Below are positions 749 through 3,219 of a DNA stretch of 44,188 bases, piece by piece; position 1 is the stretch's first letter; every line of letters begins with the position of its first letter. Source of the stretch: a virus. Under the pieces are notes generated by a model. It made no database searches and was not told the origin of the DNA. It saw nothing but the letters and a program-made list of their open reading frames with translations. A program made the position numbers and the translations under genes. The stretch lies in the IMG/VR virus record IMGVR_UViG_3300047470_000103, positions 1 to 44,188 of that record. One strand, written 5' to 3'.

Positions 749-1399
749 ATGCAAAAATACCTTTTTTACTCACTATCACTACTTTTTATTTTTTTTATTT
801 TTTTAGGGTTATCCATCGAAGTAAAAGAGTTTTATAAAATTGAGGGCGATTATCTATCCTCTTTTTCGACACTTATTGCTGCGTTGGTTGCTTTTGCCCT
901 TTATAAGGATTGGCGTGAAGAGCAAGAGTACCAAACAAAAAAAGAATTTATTCTAAATATTAAAAATATATTTAAAGAATTATATGATCTTAATTTTTCA
1001 GAAATAGACCGTAGAGTAGATATTCTTGTATCCTTAAAAAATGTAATTCCAAATTCTGATTTATCTTATAAAAGCATGACCAAAATTAATGCTTATAAAG
1101 GAAAATATTCTGCACTTTCAATGCACTTATTGATGAATTTAAAAGAGTATGAAATTGTAAGTGGCGATTCCATATTTATTAAAGCAGCTTTAGAAGAGTT
1201 AGAAAAGCAAAATGTTAGGCTGCAAAATTCCTATGATGAATTATTTGGCAGTATGAATTTAGCTAAAATTAATTATGATGAACCTATTGAGAAAATGCAT
1301 AATTTTAATAATTGCACCATTGAAGTAATTGGAGATATATATAATAAAATTGTAATTAAATTGATCAATAAACTTCGTCCACGTGATAGTAATCTATAA
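749..1399 (+). CDS. Two-TM membrane-anchored protein, cargo of the old prophage
   Basis: The 216-residue protein has a very hydrophobic N-terminus (residues 5-25), a short outer loop, and a second membrane segment near residues 37-52 ending in FALYKDWREEQ. A long charged helical domain of about 160 residues, probably cytoplasmic, follows. No catalytic motif is visible. The coding sequence is very AT-rich even for this region, which suggests foreign origin. It lies between the att remnant and a convergent Xis-like pseudogene, the same place the 2893-3219 gene takes in the intact prophage. Two-TM anchors with a helical cytoplasmic domain occur among phage-exclusion and abortive-infection proteins, so a defence role is possible, but it is inferred from shape and place only. 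Confidence 0.6.
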   Translation: MQKYLFYSLSLLFIFFIFLGLSIEVKEFYKIEGDYLSSFSTLIAALVAFALYKDWREEQEYQTKKEFILNIKNIFKELYDLNFSEIDRRVDILVSLKNVIPNSDLSYKSMTKINAYKGKYSALSMHLLMNLKEYEIVSGDSIFIKAALEELEKQNVRLQNSYDELFGSMNLAKINYDEPIEKMHNFNNCTIEVIGDIYNKIVIKLINKLRPRDSNL

Positions 1400-1406
1400 T
1401 TTATAG

Positions 1407-1427
1407 GGGGCTTAAAGCCCCTTTTTT
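1407..1427. terminator. Rho-independent terminator
   Basis: GGGGCTT (1407-1413) pairs with AAGCCCC (1415-1421), realistically as a GGGGC/GCCCC stem, and six T follow. It ends the gene at 749-1399. The stop codon of the convergent Xis-like pseudogene (1412-1414) lies inside it, as at 3208-3232 in the intact prophage. Confidence 0.85.
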
Positions 1428-1603
1428 AATTCTTTCTTCTCGACTACCGTTGCTGTCTTTGAATTTAAGTTTTCAAGGATAGGAATAACTTCATTCGGAT
1501 CGTAAAGATGTTTCCCATCAGTCCCTTTATTGAATGGACGAAGCTCATCAATTATTAATTTTCGCGACAGGCTATAGCGATCCATTAACCATGCTGCCGT
1601 AAC
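1412..1603 (-). pseudogene. Truncated copy of the Xis-like HTH gene
   Basis: On the minus strand this reads V-T-AAWLMDRYSLSRKLIIDEL, then GTDGKHLYDPNEVIPILENL and a basic-acidic tail. It matches the C-terminal 60 residues of the intact protein at 3231-3527 (AAWLMERYNLSRKTIIDEL, GDGKHLYSPATVMPILDNL). Homology stops sharply at about 1603; upstream codons hit a stop within about 20 residues and no plausible start is present. The N-terminal 35-40 residues are therefore missing. It is the clearest coding trace of the older prophage. Confidence 0.8.
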
Positions 1604-1717
1604 TGAAATGGCTAATATAGCTAAATAACGAAACCTCTGGTACGAATAAAATTTGTTTCATGTCATAATTAAAACCTAATGATTCAAATGGTTAGAAATG
1701 TGAAAGGTATTATATAA

Positions 1718-2071
1718 ATGAAGAAATTAATGCTTGCTTTGTTAGTGTTATTTTGTGGGGTTGCTCATGCAGAATGTAAAACTGGTAATGTTTATTCTGA
1801 TATCGAATGTTTTGATAAACAGTTAAAAACTGATAAAGCTAAAATGAATAAAATTTACAATAAATTAGCTTCAAACTTGGATGGTGAAGGGAAAGCCAAT
1901 TTGGAAAATTCTCAAAAGGCTTGGCTTGATTATCGTACAAAACAATGTTCTGGGTTGATGGGGTATTATGGATCTCAAGCAATGGGGGCGGGTTCTCATT
2001 TAATTATCTTGAGTTGTGAAGCCGATAAAACTAAAGAGCGTCTTAATGAGCTTAAAAACTTAGATCTTTAA
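1718..2071 (+). CDS. LprI/DUF1311-family periplasmic protein
   Basis: The 117-residue product starts MKKLMLALLVLFCGVAHA, a clear Sec signal peptide cut before EC. The mature part has the DUF1311 (lysozyme inhibitor LprI N-terminal) pattern: four cysteines, an early EC-x-D-x-Q-L element, a helix with MNKIYNKLASNL, then SQKAWLDYRTKQC, and a final C-E-x-x-x-K-T-x-E-R-x-x-x-L. LprI proteins can block lysozyme; many relatives have no known role. The gene is read with 2088-2477 (16-base gap) and lies in the old-prophage remnant, so it may be lysogenic cargo. Family call is by motif. Confidence 0.75.
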   Translation: MKKLMLALLVLFCGVAHAECKTGNVYSDIECFDKQLKTDKAKMNKIYNKLASNLDGEGKANLENSQKAWLDYRTKQCSGLMGYYGSQAMGAGSHLIILSCEADKTKERLNELKNLDL

Positions 2072-2087
2072 AAACGGATTATATTCC

Positions 2088-2477
2088 ATGAAAACTATTA
2101 TTTGTTTACTAAGTTCTCTTTTGATTTCAGTTGCAGCGTTTGCACATGAAAACCCAGATAGAATAGGTCAATGCTTTGTTATAGATGGGAAAAACATTGC
2201 TAAACCTTGTATTGTTTCATCTGGTGGAGGTGCTGGTGGAATGTACACACTTCTTACTATTGGTGAGAAGGAATACTTAATTGAAGAGTCAACCATGAAT
2301 ACTGATAGTGAAGAACGATCTATATCTATGGGAAGTGACTCAGATGAGTTATTGGAAGCGGTTAATTATTATCGGGATGGTAAAACAAAAAAAGTGATTA
2401 AAAATTATAAAGATGATTCATGGTCATGTTATAGCCAAATTAAAGCCAAGCTAGATGCTTGTTACAGAATTCGTTAA
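2088..2477 (+). CDS. Small secreted cysteine-containing protein, unknown
   Basis: The 129-residue product begins with a signal peptide ending AAFA|HENP. The mature part has four cysteines (GQCFVI, KPCIVS, SWSCYS, DACYRI), likely two disulfides, and a glycine-rich GGGAGGMY turn. The family is not recognised. It follows the LprI-like gene by 16 bases and is probably co-transcribed, so both products would act in the periplasm. About 415 bases without a gene follow (2478-2892). They hold the decayed attR-flank copy, a terminator and attL, with nothing else seen. Confidence 0.6.
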   Translation: MKTIICLLSSLLISVAAFAHENPDRIGQCFVIDGKNIAKPCIVSSGGGAGGMYTLLTIGEKEYLIEESTMNTDSEERSISMGSDSDELLEAVNYYRDGKTKKVIKNYKDDSWSCYSQIKAKLDACYRIR

Positions 2478-2620
2478 TTTTTTCTGACTTTAAAACTACT
2501 AAGTGATATTTCTTAAAAAACTTGAGTAAGAGGGCTTAAGAATAAAGTTTTGGTAAGTTTTTTTTAGTGTTCTAAGAATTACTGATTATTAGTCATAATG
2601 AAAATATGATCGTCGAAAAG

Positions 2621-2665
2621 TATAGCTAATTTGAATAGCCAAAACTCAGTAATCAACAATAAAAA
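2621..2665. repeat. Decayed copy of the attR-flanking sequence
   Basis: This 45-base stretch aligns without gaps to 44006-44050. Shared blocks include TTTGAATAG and ACAATAAAAAA, with about a dozen substitutions between. The dyad that is perfect at 44006-44028 is broken here. It is best explained as the integrase-side end of the older prophage. Confidence 0.6.
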
Positions 2666-2698
2666 AACCACCTAATTCTTTCGAATTAAGTGGTTTTT
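2663..2698. terminator. Hairpin terminator beside attL
   Basis: AAAAACCACCTAATTC (2663-2678) pairs with GAATTAAGTGGTTTTT (2683-2698) with one mismatch and a TTTC loop, flanked by A and T runs. It resembles the hairpin at 543-575 in sequence and place. Before the present phage inserted, it would have ended the tRNA-Gly transcript on the minus strand. Confidence 0.75.
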
Positions 2699-2755
2699 AA
2701 ATTTTGGAGCGGGAAACGAGACTCGAACTCGCGACCCCAACCTTGGCAAGGTTAT
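2699..2755. repeat. attL, left end of the prophage
   Basis: These 57 bases are identical to 44100-44156. They hold the 3' half of tRNA-Gly from the anticodon loop to CCA plus a few downstream bases. The match breaks at both edges (T versus C before, A versus G after). Crossover must lie inside the block, most likely near the anticodon stem and loop, where tyrosine integrases usually cut tRNA genes. Confidence 0.92.
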
Positions 2756-2892
2756 AATTTTTAATATAAATCAAATGCTTGGAAATGAGTGGTGGCGCAG
2801 TGGGGGCAGGGTAACTTTATTGTAATAAAATATTTAAATTATCTATTTTTTGATTCATTTTAAATAATAAGATAGGCATTACATTGTATAGG

Positions 2893-3219
2893 ATGAGTAC
2901 AAAACCCATGGTAATCAAACAAATTGCTGAGATTGAACGTATTAAAAAGTTAGATGAACAATGGGATATTATCAGAAAGGATATAAATTTTGCAGAAGAA
3001 CTTGCTATTAATGATTTTGTTAAAGAAAACACTAGGTTTGAAAGTATAGTGGATCTTTATAATCAAGCTTGTCAACATACTCTTGGTCATCAAGATATTT
3101 CTGATCTAACCAGAAAAAACTTAGATGCCTTTATAAGTGAAAATTCAGAATTTAAAAGTATGATTGATTTAAAAGTTAAATTTGATAATTTTTTCAAAAA
3201 GATTAATAAAGGCGCTTAA
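2893..3219 (+). CDS. Unknown small helical protein with an internal repeat, cargo at attL
   Basis: The product is 108 residues from ATG 2893; upstream TTG 2884 and downstream ATG 2908 are alternatives, and no good ribosome site decides between them. It is rich in charged helix and has no signal peptide or membrane segment. Two stretches look duplicated: NDFVKENTRFESIVDLYNQ and LDAFISENSEFKSMIDLKV. It is the only plus-strand gene between attL and the end of the early operon, and it shares a terminator with the convergent gene at 3231. That place is typical of lysogeny-expressed cargo genes. I recognise no family. Confidence 0.55.
   Translation: MSTKPMVIKQIAEIERIKKLDEQWDIIRKDINFAEELAINDFVKENTRFESIVDLYNQACQHTLGHQDISDLTRKNLDAFISENSEFKSMIDLKVKFDNFFKKINKGA

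What the first reader, a model, noticed from the sequence alone, without database searches (positions are those of the whole stretch)
749..3219. Cargo slot between attL and the end of the early operon
Both the old remnant and the intact prophage have the same layout: att, one plus-strand gene of unknown function, a hairpin terminator, then the convergent Xis-like gene. The cargo gene differs completely (a two-TM protein at 749, a soluble repeat protein at 2893). Such swapped, lysogeny-accessible genes are where prophages often keep anti-phage or fitness genes, so this may be an undescribed defence slot.
Basis: inference. Interest (0 to 1): 0.68.

Follow-up and report, generated by a model that had tools for sequence, protein, structure and literature searches.

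The report
Exchangeable gene slot beside prophage attachment site
Acinetobacter prophages related to this one keep a small swappable slot next to their attachment site; the gene in it here belongs to an unnamed protein family carried by phages and plasmids of both bacteria and archaea, and its company suggests, but does not prove, a role in phage-versus-phage defence.

Summary
attL is at 2699-2755 (57/57 identical to attR in tRNA-Gly). The relic and the intact prophage share one layout: att, plus-strand cargo, shared hairpin, convergent Xis-like gene. Among 79 IMG/VR relatives of the Xis-like gene, 50 have the slot bounded by the same att. Their cargo is not constant: 24 carry the soluble-repeat family (A), 14 the two-TM family (B), the rest a PLD nuclease, a TIGR04255 trio, another 2-TM protein or secreted proteins; 2 have no intact ORF. 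Two phages 98.25% identical over 2 kb of Xis-like gene and early operon carry unrelated A and B genes, so the slot is real and exchanged. Family A matches no Pfam or NCBIfam model. It occurs in phages of many bacterial genera and on plasmids, including archaeal ones, but in only 1 of 398 Pseudomonadota species genomes. In 10 of 13 phage contexts it is a lone gene antisense to both neighbours. On Psychrobacter plasmids it lies near PARIS, ThsB-type TIR or type IIG restriction genes. Defence or superinfection exclusion is the likeliest role, but neither cargo is a known defence protein and no lysogen expression data were available.

The parts
573..676 (.). decayed att region of the older element
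   Evidence: 72% identical to 2694-2797
749..1399 (+). relic cargo, family B: N-terminal TM hairpin and a cytosolic helical domain (216 aa, intact ORF)
   Evidence: 89-90% identical homologue in the slot of L003/L062; dN/dS 0.12; AF2 pLDDT 76, all helical
1405..1423 (.). hairpin between relic cargo and relic Xis-like gene
   Evidence: terminator scan
1412..1585 (-). truncated Xis-like gene of the relic (C-terminal part)
   Evidence: phrog_17994 positions 46-89, E 1.9e-15; nucleotide homology to L062 runs from 749 to 1603
2663..2698 (-). hairpin just beyond the tRNA-Gly 3' end (terminator of the tRNA transcript; inferred)
2699..2755 (-). attL (3' part of tRNA-Gly)
   Evidence: 57/57 identical to 44100-44156; same att in 50 relatives
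2769..2781 (+). IHF-consensus site in the attP arm (AATCAAATGCTTG)
   Evidence: pattern match; conserved position in relatives
2788..2812 (+). arm-type repeat containing GGTGGCGCAGTGGGGGCAG (presumed integrase arm site)
   Evidence: conserved upstream of all cargo types of this clade; core GGTGGCG recurs at 43913
2816..2829 (.). small palindrome TTTATTGTAATAAA marking the end of the conserved arm
   Evidence: sequences diverge by cargo type soon after it
2908..3219 (+). cargo gene, family A (103 aa from ATG 2908; ORF open from TTG 2884): soluble helical protein with two F-x(3)-[NT]-T-x-F-x-S-type repeats
   Evidence: 28-member cluster in slots; PHROG 2211; AF2 5 helices, pLDDT 75
3208..3228 (.). 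bidirectional hairpin shared by the cargo and the early operon; overlaps the cargo stop codon
   Evidence: found on both strands; stem sequence differs between cargo types but stays paired
3231..3527 (-). Xis-like HTH gene, last gene of the early operon
   Evidence: phrog_17994 E 2.7e-57; present in all 63 loci with slot sequence, mean identity 88%
42878..43948 (-). tyrosine integrase
   Evidence: PF00589 E 1.1e-14
44100..44156 (-). attR inside tRNA-Gly(gcc) 44106-44181

Best explanation
The interval between the attP arm and the terminator of the early operon is an exchangeable accessory (moron) slot of a family of tRNA-Gly-integrating Acinetobacter prophages. Homologous recombination in the conserved flanks (attP arm on one side, terminator and Xis-like gene on the other) swaps the cargo cassette (the swap is shown by comparison; the recombination step is inferred). 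The cargo runs against the early operon and is insulated by a shared terminator, so it can be transcribed from its own promoter while the lytic genes are silent (inferred). The two main cargoes most likely act in competition between phages. Family B is probably an inner-membrane protein with a conserved TM hairpin and a hypervariable cytosolic sensor or effector domain, as expected of a superinfection-exclusion or abortive-infection protein. Family A is probably a small soluble factor of defence or counter-defence, because it moves almost only on mobile elements and keeps company with defence genes on some plasmids (both roles inferred).
For: Slot variability with constant flanks. L012 (B) and L051 (A) are 98.25% identical over 2 kb with unrelated cargo. 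Acinetobacter phage 4316 shows the same order int / slot / Xis-like in a complete phage genome. Purifying selection on cargo, dN/dS 0.03-0.26. At the same relic site another genome (G007) has a different intact family B gene (30% identical), so relics keep intact cargo. Alternative cargo includes a PLD nuclease (DrmC-like, E 4.5e-12) and TIGR04255. All 19 close family B hits in IMG/VR lie on contigs already found through the Xis-like gene. Family A: phages and plasmids of many phyla, rare in genomes, lone antisense gene in most phages, near PARIS, ThsB and type IIG RM on Psychrobacter plasmids.
Against: No PADLOC match and no Pfam or NCBIfam match above cut-off for either window cargo; no fold match for A or B. 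Some slot cargo looks like secreted fitness genes (trypsin-like protease, lipoprotein: L060, L068, L069, L074). On plasmids the defence neighbours may be mere co-passengers; other plasmid contexts (haloarchaeal, Halomonas, Paenibacillus) show none obvious. The early operon itself is mosaic (helicase homologue in only 15 of 63 loci), so turnover is not unique to the slot. No promoter was resolved.
Confidence: 0.6

Rival explanations
1. The cargo genes are general lysogenic-conversion genes that help the host (envelope, stress, secretion) and have nothing to do with phage defence.
For: Some slots hold a secreted protease, a lipoprotein or a secreted 286-aa protein. Family B is a membrane protein. 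Prophage morons often alter host fitness (general knowledge).
Against: The two most frequent cargoes are neither secreted nor recognisable enzymes. Family A spans bacteria and archaea on mobile elements, which argues against a niche-specific host trait.
Confidence: 0.22
2. Family A is a phage or plasmid housekeeping regulator (of repression, replication or excision) that happens to lie in reverse orientation, or an anti-defence protein used at entry.
For: In Gram-positive phages it often sits by the antirepressor and replication genes. It is also kept on small Rep-Mob plasmids next to a toxin-antitoxin pair. A non-significant resemblance to AcrIIC5 (E 0.12).
Against: In Acinetobacter it is freely replaced by unrelated genes, so it is dispensable to the phage. 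An entry-time gene would be expected in the early operon, not against it.
Confidence: 0.25
3. The slot is only a tolerant landing place for random DNA with no selected function.
For: Two of 50 slots have no intact ORF and one carries a broken B gene (L077, L082, L006). Phage genomes are mosaic.
Against: dN/dS 0.03-0.26; almost every slot holds an intact ORF, usually ending at or inside the shared hairpin; the same two families recur with many alleles.
Confidence: 0.07

Closest known systems
[quoted passage not shown]
   Same: Small locus with high gene turnover between conserved phage genes; near the integrase in P4 and in the Vibrio and Bacillus examples of that paper; much uncharacterised cargo
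   Different: Here the cargo is mostly one gene, two families dominate, no cargo is a recognised complete system, and no activity has been tested; I found no mention of tRNA-Gly Acinetobacter prophages in the passages read
PHROG 2211 (unknown function), for family A
   Same: Significant profile match (E 2.1e-18 for a typical slot member, 7.9e-5 for the window protein)
   Different: PHROG 2211 carries no functional annotation; plasmid and archaeal members, the repeats and the lone-antisense habit are additions made here
DUF4760 phage proteins (e.g. beside the integrase of Acinetobacter phage PhabP_R1)
   Same: Short protein encoded beside the integrase of a temperate Acinetobacter phage
   Different: Families B and 2TMb do not match PF15956
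Ltp-type superinfection-exclusion genes of Streptococcus thermophilus prophages (PMC3952083)
   Same: Prophage gene for a membrane-attached protein that excludes other phages
   Different: Ltp is a surface lipoprotein; B has a TM hairpin and a predicted cytosolic domain; sequence relation not tested

Membership tests
Prophage accessory hotspot of the P2/P4 kind | Small locus with high turnover between conserved phage sequences | tested here: met
   50 att-bounded slots, 416-2406 bp, at least 7 cargo types
Prophage accessory hotspot of the P2/P4 kind | Contains recognised anti-phage systems | tested here: inconclusive
   Only a DrmC/NucT-like PLD nuclease and weak matches; A, B and the TIGR04255 trio without convincing PADLOC hits
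Prophage accessory hotspot of the P2/P4 kind | Cargo confers phage resistance | not testable with these tools
   needs plating assays
PHROG 2211 (window 2908 gene) | Significant match to the family profile | tested here: met
   E 7.9e-5; slot relatives E 2.1e-18 and 5.5e-12
DISARM (PLD cargo as DrmC) | DrmC together with the other DISARM genes | tested here: not met
   slot holds only the PLD gene, or the PLD gene with a 2-TM gene or an integrase; score far below the NCBIfam cut-off (25.3 against 133)
AcrIIC5-type anti-CRISPR (family A) | Significant sequence or fold similarity | tested here: not met
   E 0.12-0.36, no fold match
Superinfection-exclusion membrane protein (family B) | Membrane protein encoded by a prophage | tested here: met
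   hydrophobic windows above 1.6 at residues 1-29 and a second helix from residue 35 in the AF2 model; the second TM does not pass the hydropathy threshold, so the hairpin is a prediction
Superinfection-exclusion membrane protein (family B) | Expressed in lysogens and blocks a second phage | not testable with these tools
   needs RNA-seq and plating
Excisionase (3231 gene) | Small HTH protein needed for excision | tested here: inconclusive
   a 33%-identical relative is annotated 'excisionase and transcriptional regulator'; no Pfam match

The most novel reading that the evidence does not exclude
Family A (PHROG 2211-like, two F-x3-[NT]-T-x-F-x-S-type repeats) is an undescribed, stand-alone immunity or counter-immunity protein carried by mobile elements across bacteria and archaea. 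It sits as a lone reversed gene in temperate phages so that the lysogen, not the lytic programme, expresses it, and the Acinetobacter slot alternates it with a second new membrane defence family.
Probability: 0.35. Interest if true: 0.78.

Novelty: new member of a known kind. Interest (0 to 1): 0.55.

Why it matters
A bounded, easily recognised slot in common prophages of a clinically important genus gives a ready list of candidate phage-competition genes. One of them belongs to a protein family without Pfam or NCBIfam model that is shared by phages and plasmids of bacteria and archaea, so a single phenotype would explain genes annotated 'hypothetical' (or, doubtfully, 'ThuA domain') in many elements. 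Relics that keep intact, different cargo suggest that hosts may profit from these genes after the phage is gone.

Tried and rejected
Close relatives of the window A protein in IMG/VR and phages by single-sequence search: none; a slot relative as query was needed. No phage-record relative of the 749 gene. Weak Pfam hits (YopX, DXPR_C, septin and others) all below cut-offs: rejected. AcrIIC5 resemblance (E 0.12): rejected as chance. Foldseek of A against PDB and BFVD and of B against PDB: no match at E <= 0.001. The genome-contig scan found only 3 loci because the patterns were narrow; replaced by a genus-wide profile search. Profile A3 too diverse for a pattern search. Promoter scan: no more sites than in shuffles. 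A mafft run timed out and was replaced by blastn. Literature searches found no description of this slot or of family A in the papers held; subscription journals are largely not covered.

Full report
WHAT IS THERE. The window is an IMG/VR virus record whose relatives are Acinetobacter phages. attL (2699-2755) and attR (44100-44156) are identical over 57 bp and correspond to the 3' end of tRNA-Gly(gcc). To the left lies the end of an older element: a decayed att (573-676, 72%), an intact 216-aa ORF (749-1399), a hairpin, and a truncated Xis-like gene of the same PHROG as the intact one.

ANATOMY OF THE SLOT. Comparing the slots of relatives shows three zones. The first ~85 bp after att is conserved whatever the cargo: an IHF-consensus site (2769), an arm-type repeat (2791; its core recurs at 43913 on the integrase side) and a small palindrome. 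This is the attP arm, as expected from lambda-type attachment sites (general knowledge; site functions inferred). Then comes the variable cassette. It ends in a hairpin that usually overlaps or closely follows the cargo stop codon and also terminates the opposing Xis-like gene; its stem differs between cargo types (GGCGC/GCGCC or GGGGC/GCCCC) but stays paired. In Acinetobacter phage 4316, a complete circular phage genome, the order int - slot gene - Xis-like gene is direct, so the slot belongs to the phage.

THE SLOT IS EXCHANGED. The Xis-like gene has 79 relatives in IMG/VR; 50 loci contain the same att downstream. My tally: family A 24; family B 14 (one broken); 2-TM protein of another family 1; PLD nuclease 1; PLD nuclease plus 2-TM 1; a three-gene TIGR04255 operon 2; secreted protease and/or lipoprotein 4; secreted 286-aa protein 1; no intact ORF 2. 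Many loci come from closely related strains, so these are not independent events; family A has 18 distinct sequences, the window included. The sharpest test: L012 (B) and L051 (A) are 98.25% identical over 2 kb of Xis-like gene and early operon, yet their cargo is unrelated. A caution: the early operon is itself mosaic (a homologue of the window helicase in only 15 of 63 loci). In related phages at another tRNA (Val) the integrase follows the Xis-like gene, and in several relatives (L081, L089, L093, L097) a PLD gene again lies against the Xis-like gene, beside an integrase, so the position convergent to the Xis-like gene is used with more than one integrase.

RELICS KEEP CARGO. The relic locus of the window (1407-2074) is 89% identical to the same place in genome G007, where an intact but different family B gene (207 aa, 30% identical to the 749 protein) occupies the relic slot. 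Two relics with intact and different cargo suggest that the host keeps, or can renew, the gene after the phage is lost (inference).

FAMILY B (749). N-terminal TM hairpin with an almost invariant stretch (GDYLSAFxTLvAAxVAxxLxxDWREQ) and a hypervariable helical C-terminal domain. AlphaFold2 gives an all-helical model (mean pLDDT 76, nine sequences) without a specific fold match. All 19 close IMG/VR relatives are on contigs already found through the Xis-like gene; 53 of 175 Acinetobacter genomes hold mostly distant relatives. dN/dS between the relic and the L062 copy is 0.12.

FAMILY A (2908). About 100 aa, two repeats of an F-x3-[NT]-T-x-F-x-S type, predicted as five helices (mean pLDDT 75) without fold match. 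It hits PHROG 2211 and no Pfam or NCBIfam model above cut-off. tblastn with a slot relative finds it in phages of Pseudomonas, Pseudoalteromonas, Clostridioides, Staphylococcus, Streptococcus, Bacillus, Geobacillus and Leptospira and on plasmids of Psychrobacter, Enterococcus, Halomonas, Cetobacterium, Hymenobacter, Methanosphaera and several haloarchaea. In species genomes it is rare: 4 of 175 Acinetobacter and 1 of 398 Pseudomonadota. In eight annotated Gram-positive phage or phage-plasmid stretches it is antisense to both neighbours every time, against 7 of 108 other genes with both neighbours shown in those tables (my count by eye). Over all 13 phage contexts looked at, 10 show it; ACA1, Leptospira LE1 and one Alkalihalophilus phage-plasmid do not. 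On three small Psychrobacter plasmids it precedes a RelB-type antitoxin/toxin pair and then a PARIS AriAB fusion (E 2.2e-140, one plasmid) or a PDC-M50A-like protein with a ThsB-like TIR protein (E 9.4e-91; two plasmids with the same gene order, one scanned); on a fourth it lies between a type IIG restriction enzyme and a methyltransferase. Other plasmid contexts show no obvious defence gene.

HOW IT MOST LIKELY WORKS. Shown: constant flanks, variable cassette, opposite orientation, shared hairpin, purifying selection. Inferred: own promoter active in the lysogen, homologous exchange of the cassette, benefit to the lysogen against other phages. For B the most likely role is a membrane-anchored exclusion or abortive protein with a conserved membrane part and a changing recognition part; for A, a soluble defence or counter-defence factor. 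I give the slot itself about 0.95 and the defence or exclusion role about 0.55-0.6.

COMPARISON WITH THE KNOWN. The slot works like the P2/P4 hotspots (PMC9122126), which lie between conserved genes, in P4 next to the integrase, and whose authors also report hotspots beside or near integrases in Vibrio and Bacillus prophages. It is a new member of that kind, not a new kind. Family A is the more novel part: a cross-domain mobile-element protein without a curated Pfam/NCBIfam family or known function.

Noticed in passing
window 1718-2071 and 2088-2477: An LprI-like secreted protein (PF07007, E 4.3e-16) and a phrog_18806 protein lie between the relic and attL; the first recurs with the relic in genome G007 (L228:1980-2333) and, as DNA, in L010 and L040.
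   Followed up: partly
L060, L069, L074 (slot): Minus-strand trypsin-like secreted protease with a small lipoprotein in place of the usual cargo; L068 has the lipoprotein alone.
   Followed up: no
L072, L075 (slot, three genes): Three-gene cassette: TIGR04255 protein (E 1.4e-42), an HTH protein and a 273-aa protein of unknown family; no PADLOC match, looks like a candidate system.
   Followed up: partly
L209 and L221 (Psychrobacter plasmids pA56BH2, pA19H1): Same gene order family A - RelB/YafQ - PDC-M50A-like - ThsB-like TIR on 5-kb mobilizable plasmids, without an annotated ThsA; L208 has a fused AriAB in the same place.
   Followed up: partly
L230:6126-6647 (phage PhabP_R1): DUF4760 protein (E 2.3e-34) encoded beyond the integrase in Acinetobacter phages whose Xis-like gene is 33% identical; perhaps a parallel att-side moron.
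   Followed up: no
L209:1425-1736 and L121:4001-4288: Family A members are named 'ThuA domain-containing protein' in public records although no Pfam model matches the plasmid copy: probable naming error.
   Followed up: partly
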